Shown piece after piece: positions 745 through 15,159 of a stretch of 21,728 bases of DNA. Source of the DNA: a virus; IMG/VR virus record IMGVR_UViG_3300047471_000919, positions 1 to 21,728 of that record. One strand, given 5' to 3'. A program made the position numbers and the translations under genes. The notes beneath the pieces are model-generated. The model was not told the origin of the DNA. It saw only the letters and a program-made list of their open reading frames with translations, and searched no databases. How positions within the stretch are numbered: position 1 is the stretch's first letter; each line of letters starts with the position of its first letter.

Positions 745-765
745 TCTCCACCCTCCGACCGGAAG

Positions 766-798
766 CCTCCGGGCACTCCCACCCGGAGGTTTTTGTTT
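766..798 (+). terminator. Strong rho-independent terminator
   Basis: An 8-bp perfect GC-rich stem (CCTCCGGG at 766-773 with CCCGGAGG at 782-789) encloses an 8-base loop and is followed at once by TTTTTGTTT (790-798). It ends the leftmost rightward transcript 21 bases after the last stop codon. It lies directly beside the 5-base-period tract, which belongs to a convergent minus-strand transcript. Read on the minus strand the hairpin has no U tract, so it is a weaker stop for that transcript. Confidence 0.92.
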
Positions 799-800
799 CC

Positions 801-945
801 CTTGCCATGCCCAGCATCGCCCAGCCCGGCCGGTCCGCGCCTCGCCTAACCTTGCCATACCTCGCAGTGCCATGCCCTGCCCCGCCCGGCCGCGCCAGGC
901 ATCGCCAGGCCCCGCCTTGCCACGCCCATCCTCGCCCAGCCGCGC
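801..945 (-). repeat. 5-base-period tract (GCNNG on the minus strand), 29 units, 3' of the RAMP-like gene
   Basis: From 801 to 945 the sequence divides without any register slip into 29 pentamers of plus-strand form CNNGC (minus-strand GCNNG). By direct count, base 5 is C in 29/29 units, base 4 is G in 25/29 and base 1 is C in 26/29, while bases 2 and 3 vary freely (TT, AT, CA, TC, GC, AG and others). It begins right after the forward terminator and ends 4 bases from the stop codon of the minus-strand gene, so it would form that gene's 3' untranslated region. It is not a simple microsatellite because the two middle bases change from unit to unit. It is not a CRISPR array because there is no long repeat. 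Confidence 0.9.
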
Positions 946-949
946 CCTG

Positions 950-1522
950 TTATTTTGATTGTTCCTCAAAAGAGACAACCCTGAATCGCCCAAACGGCCC
1001 ACGCTTCTCCGGGCGGAAATCTCCGATCCCGATGGACTGTCCGGCTTCATTCAGTAATTGATGGGCCATCTCGGAGGAGAGCAGATCGGAATCAATCTCA
1101 AGATCGAATCTCGCGCCCCACACATCGAAGCGCGGACGATGACGCATGATGCGACCCTTCGTGGCTGGGATAGTCACCGGGCGGGAATCCACCTCAAACG
1201 ACTTGGCTGGACCATCACCATTAAGAATAGTCACCGCATCGGTCAGCATCCTTACTGCCGAGGGGACCGTGAAGCGCAGTGTTTTGCGCGTTCCTGTGGC
1301 CTTGTGATTGGCGCCGGCAGCGGACATCGCGTTGGGGATGGCGAAGGCGGAAAAATAGAATGTCCCATCCTTGGCATTGATATAAGCCGCCTTCGTCGCT
1401 TCCTCTCGCGGATCTCGGTTCTTTACTTCGATCCTCCTCGTTTTCCCGGCCTGTTCCGCTTGTTCTCCGAATCGATGAATCAAGAGTGACGTAATTCCGC
1501 GGATTTCCACCTTAACGATCAT
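950..1522 (-). CDS. RAMP/Cas7-like candidate RNA-binding protein, stand-alone
   Basis: This 190-residue protein is the only minus-strand gene in the window. The ATG at 1522 has AGGGGAG about 8 bases upstream. The layout recalls ferredoxin-like RAMP proteins (Cas5/Cas6/Cas7). A first strand reads IVKVEIRGITSLLIHRF (2-18), with the basic motif PATKGRIMRHRPRF at 119-132. A C-terminal glycine-rich segment, GIGDFRPEKRGPFGRF (165-180), resembles the RAMP G-rich loop (GxGxxxxxGxG). No catalytic His pair of Cas6 type is obvious. It is flanked by two 5-base-period tracts on its own strand and is read from a promoter at 1695-1723. The gene call is firm. The RAMP-like assignment rests on motif resemblance only and needs a profile or structure search. 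It could instead be another phage RNA- or DNA-binding family. Confidence 0.85.
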   Translation of the reverse strand: MIVKVEIRGITSLLIHRFGEQAEQAGKTRRIEVKNRDPREEATKAAYINAKDGTFYFSAFAIPNAMSAAGANHKATGTRKTLRFTVPSAVRMLTDAVTILNGDGPAKSFEVDSRPVTIPATKGRIMRHRPRFDVWGARFDLEIDSDLLSSEMAHQLLNEAGQSIGIGDFRPEKRGPFGRFRVVSFEEQSK

Positions 1523-1558
1523 CTAGTCTCCCCTGCGCTCAACGCGCTTAAAATGTCC

Positions 1559-1683
1559 CTTGCCAAGCCACGGCACGCCTAGCCCCGCACCGCCTCGCCC
1601 CTTCCTGCCGAGCCATGCCTTTCCTCGCCAGGCCTCGCCGAGCCTTGCCGAGCCATGCCAATCCTCGCCTTGCACAGCCTTGC
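1559..1683 (-). repeat. 5-base-period tract (GCNNG on the minus strand), 25 units, 5' of the RAMP-like gene
   Basis: Twenty-five consecutive pentamers of plus-strand form CNNGC occupy 1559-1683. Base 5 is C in 23/25, base 4 is G in 22/25 and base 1 is C in 23/25, with the middle two bases variable. Units such as CTTGC, CTCGC, CATGC and CGAGC recur, and all but CGAGC are shared with the 801-945 tract. On the minus strand the tract starts within about 5 bases of the predicted transcription start (near 1688) and ends 37 bases before the ATG at 1522. It would therefore make up nearly the whole 5' untranslated region of the RAMP-like gene. A long minus-strand frame runs through it, but its first ATG (near 1696) lies upstream of the predicted transcription start. 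Confidence 0.9.
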
Positions 1684-1694
1684 CTAGATATTGC

Positions 1695-1723
1695 ATATTA
1701 CGGCGACGCCGGAGTCTTGTCAA
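1695..1723 (-). promoter_or_regulatory. Minus-strand sigma70 promoter with palindromic operator in the spacer
   Basis: On the minus strand, TTGACA (1723-1718), a 17-base spacer and TAATAT (1700-1695) form a near-consensus promoter. The spacer ends with the palindrome CGGCGTCGCCG (1711-1701) touching the -10 box. The predicted start near 1688 places the 5-base-period tract at the very 5' end of the transcript. The same palindrome sits in the same place in the two plus-strand promoters at 1732-1760 and 1908-1936, so one regulator probably controls all three. Confidence 0.82.
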
Positions 1724-4842: not shown

Positions 4843-5522
4843 AGAAGCAACCGGAGTCACGTATTGGGTGGCACTTCCTTCCGGAGGATCGCCGCGTCCC
4901 GCGCCTCGGCACTATCGTGGAGCTCGGCACGAAGGAGGTCCACGAAGGGGAACTGAGGCCCTGCTATTCTGGCCTCCACTTTTCGCCGCGCGTGATCGAT
5001 GCGCTTCGCTATGCGCCCGGGCCGGTGCTTCGGGAGGTCCGCGTCTCCGGCGCGATCGTCATGGATACCGACAAGGGCGTGGCAGCGGCGCGGGAGACGC
5101 TGTGGATCGATGATGTGACTCCGCTACTTCGCGCCTTCGCGCGCTGGTGCGCTTGGACGGTCCGCGATAAATGGAGTCCTCCACCGATCGTCCTGAAGTA
5201 CCTCCGCGAAGGCCTGGAGATCGATCGGGCCGCCGCGGGGGACGCCGCGAGGGCCGCCGCGTGGGACGCGAGGGACGCCGCGAGGGACGCCGCATGGGCC
5301 GCCGCGTGGGCCGCCGCGTGGGACGCGAGGGACGCCGCGAGGGCCGCCGCGTGGGCCGCCGCGGAGGCAGCCGCGTGGGCCGCCGCGGGGGACGCCGCGA
5401 GGGACGCCCAATCCACACACCTCGATCGCATGGTCGCCGAATTCCAGTCGGAGCGCGAACGTTCCAATCCTACCAGGCAGAGAAAGCCTCGTCCGCGATG
5501 GTCAGACCAGGAGGACCGATGA
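4839..5522 (+). CDS. DUF7666-like phage protein with Ala-rich helical repeat domain
   Basis: Starting at GTG 4839 (GTGA overlap), this protein has 227 residues. Residues 8-110 resemble a domain frequent in phages and bacteria (GWHFLP ... ELRPCYSGLHFSPRVIDALRYAPGPVLREVRVSG ... TLWIDDVTPLLRAFARWCA), which I associate with DUF7666; that name is from memory. Residues 131-190 are almost only Ala with Trp, Arg, Asp or Glu about every fourth residue (AAW, DAAR units), a long helix encoded by 12-base repeats. A charged tail follows. Its function is unknown. The repeat number may vary between related phages by slippage. Confidence 0.78.
   Translation: MKKQPESRIGWHFLPEDRRVPRLGTIVELGTKEVHEGELRPCYSGLHFSPRVIDALRYAPGPVLREVRVSGAIVMDTDKGVAAARETLWIDDVTPLLRAFARWCAWTVRDKWSPPPIVLKYLREGLEIDRAAAGDAARAAAWDARDAARDAAWAAAWAAAWDARDAARAAAWAAAEAAAWAAAGDAARDAQSTHLDRMVAEFQSERERSNPTRQRKPRPRWSDQEDR
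5229..5408 (+). repeat. 12-base coding repeats (Ala-rich helix)
   Basis: Degenerate repeats of GCCGCCGCGTGG and GACGCCGCGAGG type follow one another in frame, encoding AAAW and DAAR-like four-residue units inside the protein at 4839-5522. The period is 12 bases and the reading frame is kept, unlike the non-coding 5-base tracts at 801-945 and 1559-1683. Such tracts are prone to expansion and contraction. Confidence 0.8.
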
Positions 5523-9506: not shown

Positions 9507-9835
9507 GCGGCATTTCCCCCAATGCCCGCAGCCTCGCCCAACTCCGCGCAGAGGGCTGGACGGCGCAGATAGTGGAGCACACCGTTCCGCATACCTTCAT
9601 CAAGCGCGACCTGTTCCACTGCATAGACATCGTGGCGGTCAAGGCAGGAGAGGGCGTGTTAGGGATTCAGGCGACCACTGGACCGAATGCCGCCGCCCGA
9701 GTGCAGAAGATCCAGGAGAGCATTCAGGCTCAGGTCTGGCTACAGTCCCCGGCGCGCCTGGAGGTATGGGCCTGGTCGAAGCGAGGGATGCGCGGTGAAC
9801 GGAAGATGTGGGAAGTCCGGAGGATCAAACTGTGA
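9503..9835 (+). CDS. PD-(D/E)XK-like phage protein, possibly nuclease-related
   Basis: The 110-residue protein starts at GTG 9503. The arrangement of a helix (ARSLAQLRAEGW), then FHCIDIVAVKAGEGVLGIQATTG, then a basic segment (RVQKIQESIQAQ) and a strand-rich end (LEVWAWSKRG, MWEVRRIKL) resembles small restriction-fold proteins of phages. The Asp in CIDIVAV and the Gln in GIQATT sit where the PD and ExK motifs would be. The usual Lys is replaced by Thr, so activity is uncertain. Resolvase-like and inactive-fold roles are both possible. Confidence 0.62.
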   Translation: MSGISPNARSLAQLRAEGWTAQIVEHTVPHTFIKRDLFHCIDIVAVKAGEGVLGIQATTGPNAAARVQKIQESIQAQVWLQSPARLEVWAWSKRGMRGERKMWEVRRIKL

Positions 9836-10908
9836 GTGAATGGAAAGTCCCTCTCATGCGGCACACGTTCATGCAGGATGCCGATACCAGGAAGGCGCTG
9901 GCGGATTTCGTGCTGCATGCGGAGCGCCTGTCCATGGGCGACAAGGTGGCCGAGTTCGAGGAAGCCTTTGCCAAGTGGCAGGGCCGGCGATTCGCGGTCA
10001 TGGTCAATTCCGGCAGCTCGGCGAATCTGGCGTTGATTCAGTCCTTGCTCAATCTGGGGAGGCTGAAGCGTGGCGACAAGGTCGCGGTGTCGGGGGTGAC
10101 ATGGGCGACAAATGTCATGCCTCTTGGGCAACTTGGATTAAGACCGATCGCCGAAGACGTGCTTCCGGAGGATCTCAGCCATTTATCTAGATTTGGCAAG
10201 TTGGAATTGGATGCATGGTTCATGACCAACCTCTTAGGCTGGGCTGTATTGCGCACGAAGGCCCCTTTGTTGGAGGACAACTGCGAATCGCTTGGCACAG
10301 TGGTCCACGGCGGGAAGGCTGGCAATCTAGGCTTGGCTTCAACCTTCTCTTTTTTCGTCGGCCATCACCTCTCCACCATCGAAGGCGGGATGGTCTGCAC
10401 GGATGACCCGGAACTCCACCGCATGCTCGTCATGGTCCGGGCTCATGGCTGGGGCCGTAACCTTCCAGGGGCGCGGCCGCAGGATGCATTCACCTTCTAT
10501 GTTCCCGGCTTCAACATCCGCCCCACGGAGAGCGCTGGCTTTCTCGGGCTGCATCAGCTCCCCATGCTTGACGAGTCCATCGCCCTCCGGGAAGCCATTT
10601 ACGACCGTCTACAGCCGCAGTCGCAACTCATCGTCCGCAAACCTCCATGGATCAAGCGCCTGTCCCCCATGGCCCTGCCGTTCATCTGCGAGCCGGGGAC
10701 ACGGGACGCCACGGTGAAGCGCTTCAACGAGGCCGGTATCGAGACGCGGCCAATCGTGGCCGGGAATATCCAGCGTCAACCGTTCTGGACATGGAAGAAG
10801 ACGCATACGCCAGGGGCTGACCGGATTCATGATGATGGGTTCTACTGCGGGCTGAGGCCTGATATGACCGAGGAAGAGATCGCGATTGTGGAGGGATGCC
10901 TGCGATGA
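9832..10908 (+). CDS. colD: ColD-type GDP-4-keto-6-deoxymannose 3-dehydratase (PLP-fold, His active site)
   Basis: The 358-residue protein is of the DegT/DnrJ/EryC1 fold: NSGSSANLALIQ (59-70), EDNCESLG (148-155) with Asp149 for the PLP ring, and SFFVGHHLSTIEGGM (173-187). In sugar aminotransferases the position seven before EGG's first Gly carries the PLP-binding Lys; here it is His178. That swap is the hallmark of ColD, which removes the 3-hydroxyl of GDP-4-keto-6-deoxymannose using PMP and glutamate on the way to GDP-L-colitose. Genes for the step before (12735) and a plausible step after (14317) are nearby. The GTG start overlaps the upstream stop. An aminotransferase role is unlikely without the Lys. 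Confidence 0.82.
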   Translation: MSEWKVPLMRHTFMQDADTRKALADFVLHAERLSMGDKVAEFEEAFAKWQGRRFAVMVNSGSSANLALIQSLLNLGRLKRGDKVAVSGVTWATNVMPLGQLGLRPIAEDVLPEDLSHLSRFGKLELDAWFMTNLLGWAVLRTKAPLLEDNCESLGTVVHGGKAGNLGLASTFSFFVGHHLSTIEGGMVCTDDPELHRMLVMVRAHGWGRNLPGARPQDAFTFYVPGFNIRPTESAGFLGLHQLPMLDESIALREAIYDRLQPQSQLIVRKPPWIKRLSPMALPFICEPGTRDATVKRFNEAGIETRPIVAGNIQRQPFWTWKKTHTPGADRIHDDGFYCGLRPDMTEEEIAIVEGCLR

Positions 10909-11654
10909 TCTCTTTCGTTCCTGGGTATTATGGCCACCTCGGTAATCAGATGTTCCAGTATGCCGCGACGCGGGCATTAGCGGCTGCTAAGAGATCCGGA
11001 GATGGGACGCGACCGGCAGTAGGATGGCCCGGCGACAAGCGGCCAAATCTATATGACATCTTCCCTAATCTGGAAGGTGACAGAAGGCAGATCCGGACAG
11101 AGATTCATTATGACGAGAAGCATTTCCATTTCGATCCGGAATTCTTTTCGCTTCCGGACGGCATACAACTGGCCGGCTATTTTCAATCATGGAAGTATTT
11201 CTCCGACATATCCGGACAGATCGCCTATGAGTTCTCCCTGCCGACCGATGACTGGAGTAGCGGAACCGTCTCCGTTCATGTACGCCGCGGCGATTACCTT
11301 TCCTTCCCGGACCATCATCCGCCTCTGCCGGTGGATTATTACCGTGAAGCCATGGGCCATTTCCCCGGCGCTGACTTCGTGGTGTTCTCCGATGATCCTG
11401 GGTGGTGCCTTCTGAATCTAAGGCCGCTAGGGAATGTGCAGATTGTGACTGGCGGGAGCGCCGTCGAGGATTTGACACGAATGATCGCATGCTCAGGCGG
11501 TCATATCATCGCCAATAGCTCCTTCTCGTGGTGGGGCGCATGGCTGGATCCCAATCCCCATAAGAAGGTAATCGCCCCGATGAAATGGTTCGGGCCTGCT
11601 AAGGCCGACTGGGATACCAAGGACCTGATTCCTTCGGGATGGGAACGGATATGA
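10905..11654 (+). CDS. GT11 family alpha-1,2-fucosyl/colitosyl-transferase
   Basis: Starting at ATG 10905 (overlap with the dehydratase stop; GAGGGA 8 bases upstream), the protein has 249 residues. It shows the GT11 motifs: GYYGHLGNQMFQYA (7-20), HVRRGDY (125-131, the GDP-sugar-binding HxRRxD motif), FSDDPGW (161-167) and ANSSFSWWGAWL (203-214). GT11 enzymes transfer L-fucose from GDP-fucose to Gal; related transferases occur in colitose-containing O-antigen loci. Given the ColD-type neighbour, the donor may be GDP-L-colitose. Acceptor unknown; it is probably cytoplasmic, working on a lipid-linked or LPS sugar or on a virion protein. Confidence 0.88.
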   Translation: MISFVPGYYGHLGNQMFQYAATRALAAAKRSGDGTRPAVGWPGDKRPNLYDIFPNLEGDRRQIRTEIHYDEKHFHFDPEFFSLPDGIQLAGYFQSWKYFSDISGQIAYEFSLPTDDWSSGTVSVHVRRGDYLSFPDHHPPLPVDYYREAMGHFPGADFVVFSDDPGWCLLNLRPLGNVQIVTGGSAVEDLTRMIACSGGHIIANSSFSWWGAWLDPNPHKKVIAPMKWFGPAKADWDTKDLIPSGWERI

Positions 11655-12484
11655 AAGTCAACCTCTTCGATCATGCCTTCGCCCATGTCGCCTATTCCGT
11701 CCCCGACAGGACATGCAGCAATATCCACTGGGTCCGCAATCCCACCGCCATGAGCTACCGCTATCCAACCGTCGTCACCGACCGCAGCCTGCTGGCGCTG
11801 CCTGTATCCACCGGCCCGGCCCCGCTCATCGGCTGGCTCCTGGAGGGCCGTGCCTATGGCCGGGAGGTCTATGAGCGCGTGCCGTCCTTCATCGACCGCC
11901 TGGATATGTTGCTGACGCACGACCAAGCGCTGTTAGATGCCTATCCGCAGAAGGCCAGGTTCGTTCCATTCGGCGGCTGCTGGATTCCCGATGCCGAGTG
12001 GGGCATGCGACCGAAGACGAAACTAGTCAGCATGATTTTCAGCGCCAAGGACTTCATGCCCGGACACCATCTGCGGCATGAGGTCGCGGCCCTCGGAGGA
12101 CTGGACCTATTCGGTTATGGATCCGACCGGCCGATCAAGTCCAAGGTTGAAGGGCTGGCGGATTATCGGTTCTCCGTAGTTATCGAGAATGATCGGGCGG
12201 ACAACTATTTCACGGAGAAGCTGATCGATTGCTTCGCGCTGGGGACGATCCCGATTTATTGGGGGACTCCAAATATCGGCAAGTTCTTCGATGAGCGCGG
12301 AATTCTCATGGTCGGCAACGCCACGGATATCGCTGTCGAGTTGGGAGAATTAGGGAATAGAGATCGATATTCACCGCGCCTTGCCGCCGTCGAATCAAAC
12401 CTCGTGGAGGCCCGCAAGTATCGGCTGCCGGAGGATTACATTTACACTCACTATCTTAAGGCTTATGACAGGGGGGAAGGATGA
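11651..12484 (+). CDS. GT10 family (alpha-1,3-fucosyltransferase-like) glycosyltransferase
   Basis: From ATG 11651 (ATGA overlap) the product has 277 residues. The C-terminal donor-binding region is diagnostic: YRFSVVIEN (172-180) and DNYFTEKLIDCFALGTIPIY (184-203), followed by WGTPNIGKFF, the Glyco_transf_10 signature. The N-terminal half (1-130) would bind the acceptor. GT10 enzymes use GDP-fucose or related GDP-sugars, which matches the GDP-sugar pathway in this cassette. The exact sugar and linkage cannot be read from the sequence. Confidence 0.85.
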   Translation: MKVNLFDHAFAHVAYSVPDRTCSNIHWVRNPTAMSYRYPTVVTDRSLLALPVSTGPAPLIGWLLEGRAYGREVYERVPSFIDRLDMLLTHDQALLDAYPQKARFVPFGGCWIPDAEWGMRPKTKLVSMIFSAKDFMPGHHLRHEVAALGGLDLFGYGSDRPIKSKVEGLADYRFSVVIENDRADNYFTEKLIDCFALGTIPIYWGTPNIGKFFDERGILMVGNATDIAVELGELGNRDRYSPRLAAVESNLVEARKYRLPEDYIYTHYLKAYDRGEG

Positions 12485-12738
12485 AACGGATCGCGCTGGT
12501 GCTGTTCGTCTCGGCGTTGTGTCTCGGGTGTCTCCGGGAGAAAACCACAGTCACACCGTGGTCTTCCTCTTTTCCGCCTCCCCCTGGCGCCGCTGGCTGT
12601 CCGGCTCAGGAGCAGACCTGTTATGACTTTACCAAGGTCGGGCCGCCGCTGCTATTCGGGAAGGACTGCACGCCGAAAGCCTGCTGCACATTAGACACCT
12701 GCTGGTATAACTGCCCAGATTGGGCGATGCCTAAGTGA
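12481..12738 (+). CDS. Small Cys-rich lipoprotein
   Basis: Eighty-five residues. The N-terminus MKRIALVLFVSALCLGC is a lipoprotein signal peptide with a lipobox (CLGC) and the lipidated Cys at 17. The mature part is Pro- and Cys-rich (CPAQEQTC, CTPKACCTLDTCWYNC), suggesting disulphides in an extracytoplasmic setting. The ATG overlaps the upstream stop and its own stop overlaps the GTG of the dehydratase. A phage-encoded surface lipoprotein inside a sugar cassette could act in superinfection exclusion, by analogy with other lipoprotein conversion genes. That is inference. Confidence 0.75.
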   Translation: MKRIALVLFVSALCLGCLREKTTVTPWSSSFPPPPGAAGCPAQEQTCYDFTKVGPPLLFGKDCTPKACCTLDTCWYNCPDWAMPK

Positions 12739-13703
12739 AGATAGCGTTGATCACCGGCATCTCCGGGCAGGACGGCTCCTACCTCGCCGAATTGCTGCTG
12801 TCCAAGGACTATCAGGTCTTCGGCATGGTCCGGCGCTCCAGCTCGGTGAATACCTGGCGGCTGGACGGCGTGTTCGAGCACCCGCATTTGCATCTGGTGT
12901 ATGGGGATGTCACGGACGCCAACTCCGTGCGCTCGCTGTTCGAGAAGTCCATGCCGGATGAGGTCTATCACCTGGCGGCGCAGAGCCATGTCCGTGTCTC
13001 ATTCGACGTGCCGGCCTATACGACCGAGTCCGTGGCGCTTGGGACCACGAACCTGCTGGAGGCGCTCCGGGAGATTGCCCCGCACGCCCGCTATTACCAG
13101 GCGAGCTCCTCGGAGATGTTCGGCAGTAGTCCGCCGCCGCAGAGCGAGACGACACCCTTCAAGCCGCGAAGTCCCTATGCCTGTGCGAAGGTCTTTGCCT
13201 ATCACATGGCGCAGAATTATCGGGACGGCTTCGGCCTGCACATCAGCAACGGCATCCTCTTCAACCATGAGAGTCCGAGGCGCGGCGAGACGTTCGTCAG
13301 CCGGAAGATTGCCAAGGCCGTGGCGCGGATCGCCGCCGGGAAACAGACGACTCTCTCGCTCGGGAACCTGAAGGCGCGGCGGGACTGGGGATGGGCTCCC
13401 GAGTACGTGGAGGCCATGCATCTGATGGTGCAGCAGGAGAGCCCGGGCGACTATGTTATCGCCACGGGTCAGTCCTATAGCGTTCGGGATATGGTGGATG
13501 CGGCCCTATCCCATGCCGGGCTGCCATTCTCTCCGCATGTTATAACCGACCTCCGGCTGCTGAGGCCCACGGAAGTGGAGGATCTCCGCGGCGATCCAAC
13601 GCTGGCCCAAGAGCATCTAGGCTGGTCTGCGCAGGTCACTTTCGAGACGATCATGCAGCGCATGGTGGTGGCCGAGATGGAAGCGCTGAGGCTGGCGGCA
13701 TGA
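12735..13703 (+). CDS. gmd: GDP-mannose 4,6-dehydratase
   Basis: This 322-residue short-chain-dehydrogenase-type enzyme has the NADP-binding GISGQDGSYLAELL (8-21), RRSSSVNT (33-40), ASSSEMFG (123-130) with the catalytic Ser/Glu, the Tyr148-Lys152 pair in SPYACAK, and NHESPRRGETFVSRKI (177-192), all typical of GMD. It converts GDP-mannose to GDP-4-keto-6-deoxymannose, the shared precursor of GDP-L-fucose, GDP-rhamnose, GDP-perosamine and GDP-colitose. It is slightly shorter than typical bacterial GMD (about 340-370). The start GTG 12735 overlaps the lipoprotein stop. Function is near certain from motifs; the end product depends on the neighbours. Confidence 0.93.
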   Translation: MKIALITGISGQDGSYLAELLLSKDYQVFGMVRRSSSVNTWRLDGVFEHPHLHLVYGDVTDANSVRSLFEKSMPDEVYHLAAQSHVRVSFDVPAYTTESVALGTTNLLEALREIAPHARYYQASSSEMFGSSPPPQSETTPFKPRSPYACAKVFAYHMAQNYRDGFGLHISNGILFNHESPRRGETFVSRKIAKAVARIAAGKQTTLSLGNLKARRDWGWAPEYVEAMHLMVQQESPGDYVIATGQSYSVRDMVDAALSHAGLPFSPHVITDLRLLRPTEVEDLRGDPTLAQEHLGWSAQVTFETIMQRMVVAEMEALRLAA

Positions 13704-14320
13704 AGCGAGGCGTTCCTGCCGGGCAAGCGCTGATGATCCGCGGGGACACTCCTGAGGTGGAGGCCACTTTAAGTCTCAGGAATAACCGCATAAAGCAAAT
13801 GAGGCTCCAGGAAGGGCTAACCCAGGCTCGATTAGCCAAACGCGTCAAGTTGTCTCACGCGACGCTCAATAAAGCAGAAAACATGGCCCGAGTTAGTCGG
13901 TCGGTGGCGGCGAAAATAGCGAAATACTTCGGGGTCGATGTCGAATATTTATTCCCCGCCTCAATTATGGCTTATGGCGGACCGCGCCGAATTTCCACGG
14001 CCATATCAACAGCAGATCTTTGCCGACCGTCTTTTGTAATGCATGAACAAGACCGTCTCTTACAACCTTCACCCGATGACATGGTATTCGCCACGGAAAG
14101 GAGCGTTGCACTGAATAATGCTATAAAAACGTTGAGCCCGAGAGAGAAGATAATTATTCAAATGAGATTTGGTCTCGGTAATTTCAAGAAGGAATATACA
14201 TTCGCAGAAGTTGCGGAGGCGTTTGGCGTTACTCGGGAGCGTATCAGGCAAATTGAAATTGGGTCCCTGAGGAAACTGCGCCATCCCTCCCGCGCTCATG
14301 GCCTTCGGAAAGTTCTATGA
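13700..14320 (+). CDS. XRE helix-turn-helix fused to sigma70 region 4 (candidate regulator)
   Basis: Two DNA-binding domains lie in one 206-residue protein. Residues about 26-87 form an XRE/Cro-type HTH (IKQMRLQEGLTQARLAKRVK ... LNKAE ... AAKIAKYFGVDVEYLF). Residues about 136-200 match sigma70 region 4 closely (TLSPREKIIIQMRFGLG ... TFAEVAEAFGVTRERIRQIE, then LRKLRHPSRAHGLR), the -35-binding and flap-contact part of RpoD. There is no region 2, so it cannot melt promoters alone. It may tether to RNA polymerase and redirect it, or act as a repressor/activator. It sits between two sugar enzymes and is visibly AT-richer than both, suggesting separate acquisition. The start overlaps the gmd stop (ATGA); ATG 13733 is an alternative. 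Confidence 0.85.
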   Translation: MKRGVPAGQALMIRGDTPEVEATLSLRNNRIKQMRLQEGLTQARLAKRVKLSHATLNKAENMARVSRSVAAKIAKYFGVDVEYLFPASIMAYGGPRRISTAISTADLCRPSFVMHEQDRLLQPSPDDMVFATERSVALNNAIKTLSPREKIIIQMRFGLGNFKKEYTFAEVAEAFGVTRERIRQIEIGSLRKLRHPSRAHGLRKVL

Positions 14321-15159
14321 CTCCTCAGATCGCTGTCACTGGCCGAACCGGGATGCTCGGTCAGGCGCTCCTCCGGGCGATGCCTGCCCAGCCAGCGAAT
14401 GGCCCCAGATACCTGATTATCGCCGCGGGACTCGTGGGCGGGATTCGGGATAATGTGGCCCGGCCAGTCAACTATCTTCGGGCGAATCTGCAAATCGTCC
14501 TCGACTTCCTGGCGGCAGCGCAGGCGAATGAAGTCAAGCGGGTGGTGTTTCTCGGCTCGTCCTGCATGTATCCACTCCACTGCCGGCAGCCAATGCGGGA
14601 AATGGATCTGTGGAGCGGGCCGCTGGAGCCCACGAACGAAGGCTATGCCATTGCCAAGCTGGCGGGGGAGGCGCTCTGCCGGGCCTACCGGACTCAACAC
14701 GATCTCGACTTCCGGACGGCTATCCTCTGCAACCTATATGGCCCAGGAGACCGCGGCTTCAAGGACCAGGAGAAAGCCCATGTCATCCCGGCGCTGATCC
14801 AGAGATTTCGGGCCGCCAGGGATGCCGGTGAGAAGACGGTCACGCTCATGGGGACAGGCCGGGCTCTCCGGGAATTCATGCATGTGGATGACGGAGCCCG
14901 CGGCGTGCTGGCCTATCTTGGGCTGGATACCGACCATGCGAGGATGAATATCGGCAGCGGGGAGGAAGTCACGGTTAAGACGCTGGCGGAGGGGATTGCG
15001 GCACTGGTTGGCTTCAAGGGCGCAGTCAAGTTCTCCGGACATGGGGGGGATGGAATGCCGAGGAAGGTGCTGGATAGCCGGAACATGCGGAAACTCGGAT
15101 GGGCGCCGACTGTCTGCTTGTGGGATGGGCTGGAGGCCCTCGTCAAGGAGACGCGGTGA
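14317..15159 (+). CDS. GDP-L-fucose/GDP-L-colitose synthase-type epimerase-reductase
   Basis: This 280-residue SDR enzyme of the Fcl/WcaG (ColC) type has TGRTGMLG (8-15) for NADP(H), LGSSCMYP (79-86) with Ser81 and Cys83, Tyr110-x3-Lys114 in EGYAIAK, GPGD (142-145), His155 in KAHVIPAL, and REFMHVDD. Cys83 and His155 align with the C5-epimerisation residues of Fcl, so both epimerisation and C4 reduction look intact. Fcl makes GDP-L-fucose from the GMD product; ColC makes GDP-L-colitose from the ColD product. With a ColD-type gene in the same operon, colitose synthase is the better reading, but motifs alone do not separate the two. It is about 40 residues shorter than usual Fcl. Confidence 0.87.
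   Translation: MTPQIAVTGRTGMLGQALLRAMPAQPANGPRYLIIAAGLVGGIRDNVARPVNYLRANLQIVLDFLAAAQANEVKRVVFLGSSCMYPLHCRQPMREMDLWSGPLEPTNEGYAIAKLAGEALCRAYRTQHDLDFRTAILCNLYGPGDRGFKDQEKAHVIPALIQRFRAARDAGEKTVTLMGTGRALREFMHVDDGARGVLAYLGLDTDHARMNIGSGEEVTVKTLAEGIAALVGFKGAVKFSGHGGDGMPRKVLDSRNMRKLGWAPTVCLWDGLEALVKETR

What the first reader, a model, noticed from the sequence alone, without database searches (positions are those of the whole stretch)
801..1683. Two non-coding tracts with a strict 5-base period flank a lone RAMP-like gene on the same strand
Seen directly: 29 units (801-945) and 25 units (1559-1683) of GCNNG on the minus strand, with three near-fixed and two free positions per unit and no register slip over 145 and 125 bases. 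They abut the gene at 950-1522 on both sides, and the upstream tract begins at the predicted mRNA 5' end. Known: Cas7-type RAMP proteins coat RNA with a regular step per subunit (six bases in CRISPR effectors). Inference: the protein may coat this repeat RNA with one subunit per five bases, the fixed bases marking the register and the two free bases possibly carrying information. The free positions make slippage an incomplete explanation. This is my best candidate for an undescribed system.
Basis: partly seen in the sequence, partly recalled or inferred. Interest (0 to 1): 0.92.

Follow-up and report, generated by a model that had tools for sequence, protein, structure and literature searches.

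The report
Phage VIPR locus with guide-RNA repeats
The two five-base repeat tracts and the gene between them are a VIPR system, a very recently described RNA-guided weapon that viruses of bacteria use against rival viruses; this copy is a real new member, with longer guide tracts than those described, but not an unknown system.

Summary
On the minus strand, 25 GGCNN units (1560-1684) and 29 units (802-946) flank the gene at 950-1522 in strict five-base register. The gene belongs to PHROG 4652 (function not annotated there). A profile of 76 relatives matches PDB 36pp, "SUSP1 Vipr protein" (E 6e-39), and the AlphaFold2 model (pLDDT 94) matches the Cas7-group RAMP Csm3 (Z 12.6). Gene and tracts go together in both directions: of 136 loci with the gene, 131 have sense-strand GGYNN tracts beside it, three have them on the other strand, two are cut at a contig end. 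A blind search for the tract alone gave 80 loci; 61 of their records carry the gene. The system is VIPR, described in a 2026 preprint (PMC13142463): Vipr binds RNAs of alternating GGY/NN, and the NN pairs read double-stranded DNA with a one-base skip, repressing rival phages and satellites. This clade lacks a recurring accessory gene and has long unbroken tracts (median 20.5 units, up to 98; the preprint gives 9-16). No convincing target of the window's guides was found. Verdict: new member of a known kind.

The parts
950..1522 (-). vipr gene (RAMP protein, 190 aa, PHROG 4652)
   Evidence: Profile A1 against PDB 36pp_D 'SUSP1 Vipr protein' E 6.1e-39; BLASTP to SUSP1 Vipr E 3e-12; Csm3-like fold; phrog_4652 E 4.5e-18.
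1560..1684 (-). upstream guide-RNA (vrRNA) repeat tract, 25 GGYNN units
   Evidence: Register and counts; the same kind of tract beside the gene in 131 of 136 loci.
802..946 (-). downstream guide-RNA (vrRNA) repeat tract, 29 GGYNN units
   Evidence: conserved in kind in relatives.
1695..1723 (-). predicted promoter TTGACA-17-TAATAT whose start falls at the first repeat unit
   Evidence: Consensus scan, 10 of 12; prediction only.
1523..1559 (-). candidate 3' tail of the upstream vrRNA and vipr leader (GGGACATTTTAAGCGCGTTGAGCGCAGGGGAG)
   Evidence: Read directly from the sequence; the small GCGC hairpin folds only weakly better than shuffles, z -1.4.
760..801 (-). candidate 3' tail or end hairpin of the downstream vrRNA (GGGAAACAAAAACCTCCGGG...CCCGGAGG)
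   Evidence: Hairpin -22.4 kcal/mol, z -1.8; also an intrinsic-terminator-like site for the plus-strand genes. Both window tracts run into GGCAAGGGAMA.
1702..1710 (.). operator-like GGCGACGCC inside the spacer of the vipr promoter (further copies at 1745-1753 and 1921-1929)
   Evidence: Three copies in the window, all in 1702-1929; the one at 1921 lies in the spacer of the plus-strand promoter 1908-1936. Function inferred.

Best explanation
The locus is a VIPR (Viral Interference Programmable Repeat) system of a tailed phage. The two GGYNN tracts are transcribed on the same strand as the vipr gene, the upstream one from a promoter whose start lies at its first unit. Vipr, a single-domain RAMP of the Cas7 group, binds the repeat RNA; the GG-pyrimidine triplets set the register and the NN pairs form the readable code. 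By the published rule each NN pairs with two target bases and one target base is skipped. The complex then binds double-stranded DNA of a competing phage, satellite or prophage and blocks its transcription. Shown here: the gene family, the fold, the tract-gene-strand association and the GGY/NN pattern. Taken from the preprint on relatives: RNA binding, skip rule, repression. Inferred: that this particular locus is expressed and active, and what it targets.
For: Profile match to the solved SUSP1 Vipr and direct BLASTP. Csm3-like fold at pLDDT 94. Sense-strand tracts at 131 of 136 gene loci. In 2.8 Mb of longer pieces of vipr-bearing records, 223 tracts lie within 2.5 kb of a vipr, 222 of them sense; the other 15 lie in pieces in which no vipr was detected. 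Blind tract search: 61 of 80 records carry the gene. The same unit finder recovers four tracts in SUSP1, the number sequenced in the preprint. The third position is C or T in 98% of 7,576 units while the NN are mixed (the finder favours C/T there, so the C-T mixture is the informative part). Between the window and L021, whose Vipr is identical, the upstream tract differs at one base, a C to T at the Y position.
Against: No transcript data for this phage. Its tracts have 25 and 29 units, the preprint reports 9-16. No accessory (vap) gene recurs in 35 loci of this and neighbouring clades, whereas the preprint calls two genes typical. No convincing target of the window guides was found, and a pooled search of all guides in 2.8 Mb did not single out the one-base skip.
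Confidence: 0.95

Rival explanations
1. The tracts are binding sites by which the protein regulates its own mRNA, as the TRAP ring does on triplet-plus-two-base repeats, with no guide function.
For: Same five-base triplet-plus-two-spacer layout as TRAP targets (own knowledge); tracts lie next to the gene on the same strand.
Against: Tracts sit downstream of the gene alone in 54 loci and on both sides in 34, and number up to dozens, which suits guide arrays better than a leader. Fold is a Cas7-type RAMP, not TRAP. In the characterised relatives the NN pairs direct DNA targeting (PMC13142463).
Confidence: 0.03
2. The tracts are ordinary slipped-strand microsatellites in a GC-rich phage that happen to flank a gene.
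For: Tracts gain and lose whole five-base units between close relatives.
Against: Free positions carry near-maximal entropy while GGY stays fixed; tight gene and strand association over families sharing about 20% identity.
Confidence: 0.01
3. The locus is a decayed VIPR: gene and tracts are remnants no longer made into working guides.
For: Some units depart from GGY (for example GAAGG, GCCGT, TGCGG); no accessory gene; no target found.
Against: Gene intact and identical in protein to that of L021 despite DNA differences; promoter intact; about 91% of fixed positions kept.
Confidence: 0.05

Closest known systems
VIPR of Escherichia phage SUSP1 (type II; PMC13142463, PDB 36pp)
   Same: Single-domain RAMP gene in a phage, flanked on both sides by GGY/NN tracts on the coding strand; detectable protein homology; four tracts recovered there with the same finder.
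   Different: SUSP1 has four tracts of about 10-15 units, mostly GGT, and an accessory gene vap1; the window has two tracts of 25 and 29 units, mostly GGC, and no accessory gene beside vipr. Window protein shares 33% identity over 97 aligned residues with SUSP1 Vipr.
Cas7-group RAMP Csm3 of type III-A CRISPR-Cas
   Same: Fold: Z 12.6, rmsd 3.9 over 159 residues; RNA-coating role in Csm (established knowledge).
   Different: No CRISPR array and no cas genes noted around the locus; guide code is gapped pairs, not a continuous spacer; sequence identity only 11-14%.
TRAP (trp RNA-binding attenuation protein)
   Same: RNA target is a triplet repeated every five bases (own knowledge).
   Different: Different fold and triplet; TRAP reads the triplet only and the two spacer bases carry no code.

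Membership tests
VIPR | Vipr-family RAMP protein | tested here: met
   Profile E 6.1e-39 to SUSP1 Vipr in PDB 36pp; BLASTP E 3e-12.
VIPR | RAMP fold: RRM core, glycine-rich loop, no second RRM | tested here: met
   190-residue model matching Csm3 along its length; conserved GIGDFRPEKxGPFGxF motif near the C terminus, a likely G-loop. The thumb was not examined; residues 21-30 have pLDDT about 65.
VIPR | vrRNA tracts of alternating GGY/NN beside the gene | tested here: met
   Window tracts; family-wide composition.
VIPR | 9-16 units per vrRNA | tested here: not met
   25 and 29 units here; clade median 20.5, 61% of tracts over 16. The preprint derives 9-16 from the SUSP1 and P. fulva clades and reports other architectures in other types, so this is taken as variation, not exclusion.
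VIPR | Structured 3' tail on the vrRNA | tested here: inconclusive
   Both tracts run into GGCAAGGGAMA and then different hairpins; folding only weakly better than shuffles.
VIPR | Accessory vap gene | tested here: not met
   No recurring neighbour in 35 loci of this and neighbouring clades. The preprint says 'typically'; with six vap genes and seven types a vap-less type is possible (inference).
VIPR | Transcribed vrRNAs bound by Vipr | not testable with these tools
   Promoter prediction only.
VIPR | NN pairs match a target with a one-base skip | tested here: inconclusive
   No convincing target for the window guides in IMG/VR or vipr-bearing records; pooled search showed no clear excess for any skip.
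Class 1 CRISPR-Cas | CRISPR array and multiple cas genes | tested here: inconclusive
   The tandem-repeat listing of the window shows no CRISPR-like array. No dedicated cas gene scan of the window was made; only the vipr family was scanned against PADLOC.

The most novel reading that the evidence does not exclude
The clade of this window is a VIPR subtype without accessory gene whose long unbroken tracts (25-98 units in one register) are read differently from the short vrRNAs described: either one very long guide, or many overlapping guides cut from one transcript.
Probability: 0.35. Interest if true: 0.6.

Novelty: new member of a known kind. Interest (0 to 1): 0.5.

Why it matters
VIPR is a newly described RNA-guided system with a gapped code and is proposed to predate CRISPR. 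This locus and its relatives extend it to uncultivated phages and show, independently of the preprint, how tightly gene, tract and strand go together. The long unbroken tracts of this clade raise a concrete open question: how many guides one tract makes and how many units one complex reads.

Tried and rejected
Targets of the window guides: tblastn of the two antisense-strand wobble-phase peptides against phages gave nothing; the search for related loci with ambiguous peptides found no relative, and each scan used only two short patterns; four exact nine-unit one-skip patterns in IMG/VR gave 1, 1, 0 and 1 hits, about what chance gives by my rough estimate, and none extends convincingly (the last hit reaches 21 of 22 bases but lies in no listed ORF). 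A 13-unit pattern with three mismatches found nothing in 84 records. Pooled test of the skip rule with 2,232 guide windows against 2.8 Mb: counts for skips 0-3 were alike (23-29 hits) and only slightly above permuted guides (14-26). The best one-skip match outside the guide's own tract (L138 guide in L383) is 27 bases with 2 mismatches, but its skip falls on codon position 1, not the wobble base, so it is not claimed. Hammerhead-interspersed arrays: no Rfam match in 14 loci at gathering scores. Pfam, NCBIfam and PADLOC gave no usable family for the protein. TRAP-like autoregulation and plain slippage were considered and set aside. The preprint's supplement could not be read, so the type is unassigned.

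Full report
Observation. The minus strand carries 25 GGCNN units at 1684-1560 and 29 at 946-802, on either side of the gene at 950-1522. The five-base register is strict and far above shuffles. A promoter TTGACA-17-TAATAT at 1723-1695 on the minus strand puts the expected transcript start at the first unit of the upstream tract.

The gene. Pfam has nothing; PHROGs places it in family 4652, function unknown, and all 76 relatives in alignment A1 match that family. A profile of these 76 finds one significant PDB sequence, 36pp 'SUSP1 Vipr protein', E 6.1e-39. Direct BLASTP of the window protein to SUSP1 Vipr gives E 3e-12 over the C-terminal half. AlphaFold2 with the alignment gives pLDDT 93.9; the best solved matches are Csm3, the Cas7-group backbone protein of type III-A CRISPR (Foldseek E 4e-7; Z 12.6, rmsd 3.9 over 159 residues). 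36pp is not among the Foldseek matches shown; the Foldseek library stops at April 2026.

The association, tested from both ends. Starting from the gene: 76 IMG/VR loci, nearly all with tracts on the gene's strand. Starting from the tract: a blind search for nine exact GCCNN units filled its 80-locus limit; 59 of these loci hold the gene and two further records hold it elsewhere. With GGY scoring, 132 of 136 gene loci have a scored tract on the sense strand; one of these (L169) is spurious and its real tract is on the other strand, as in L067 and L124; L094 and L095 are cut at a contig end. In 2.8 Mb of longer pieces of such records, 223 tracts lie within 2.5 kb of a vipr, 222 of them on its strand; the other 15 lie in pieces in which no vipr was detected. 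The tracts lie downstream only in 54 loci, upstream only in 44, both in 34. Many loci are near-copies of each other, so these are counts of records, not of independent events; the protein family nevertheless spans identities down to about 20%.

The code. Over 7,576 units the first two positions are G in 95.5% and 97.6%; the third is C in 76% and T in 22%; the last two use all four bases (the finder favours GG and C/T, so these figures are partly built in, but the C-T mixture and the free NN are not). In this clade some loci use mostly GGT (L041) and others mostly GGC (window). Window and L021 have identical Vipr; their upstream tracts differ by one base, C to T at the third position, and their downstream tracts differ in NN pairs and whole units. 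Loci L057-L063 encode identical Vipr proteins with different guides.

What it is. A search of the literature for 'Vipr' found one work, a 2026 preprint from the Doudna laboratory (PMC13142463). It describes Viral Interference Programmable Repeat systems: a phage RAMP, Vipr, and RNAs of 9-16 YNNGG units with a structured tail; the NN pairs read double-stranded DNA with one skipped base, usually the wobble base; the complex silences transcription; targets are satellites, prophages and rival phages. My unit finder applied to SUSP1 returns four tracts, matching the four RNAs sequenced there. The window locus is therefore filed as VIPR. What is shown here is homology, fold, tract pattern and association; RNA binding, skip rule and repression are carried over from relatives.

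How this member differs. No accessory gene recurs in 35 loci of this and neighbouring clades. Tracts in the window's clade are long, median 20.5 units with 61% over 16 and a maximum of 98; the middle group (40-65% identity) and the distant group have a median of 11, with single tracts up to 28 and 175. Whether a long tract is one guide or several overlapping ones is open. The preprint mentions staggered arrays and single-RNA systems, so this need not be new. With six vap genes for seven types, this could be a vap-less type; the supplement was not available, so this is inference.

Targets. None convincing, by the routes listed under Tried and rejected. This neither supports nor refutes the guide role: the rivals of an uncultivated phage are unlikely to be well sampled.

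Regulation (inference). GGCGACGCC occurs three times in the window, at 1702, 1745 and 1921. The first is inside the spacer of the vipr promoter and the third inside the spacer of the plus-strand promoter at 1908-1936, so one repressor may control vipr and the divergent early genes together.

Noticed in passing
1702-1710, 1745-1753, 1921-1929: Three copies of GGCGACGCC, all within 230 bases, two of them inside promoter spacers on opposite strands; likely operators of one phage repressor.
   Followed up: partly
9808-15159: GDP-fucose-type sugar cluster in a phage: DegT aminotransferase, glycosyltransferases of families 11 and 10, GDP-mannose 4,6-dehydratase and, by the look of its sequence, an epimerase/reductase at 14317-15159.
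   Followed up: partly
13700-14320: Protein with a Cro-like helix-turn-helix joined to a sigma-70 region 4 domain, set inside the sugar cluster.
   Followed up: no
5227-5408: 57-base and 12-base tandem repeats inside an ORF coding for an alanine-rich AWDARDAARDAAWAA-type repeat.
   Followed up: no
L067, L124, L169: Vipr homologues whose GGY tracts lie on the opposite strand from the gene, so transcribed separately if at all.
   Followed up: no
L101:6310-7010 and L123 downstream of vipr: Very long in-register tracts of 140 and 175 units.
   Followed up: no
window 802-946 (minus strand): The downstream tract RNA is predicted to fold into a long hairpin, z -4.05, which might compete with protein binding.
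   Followed up: no
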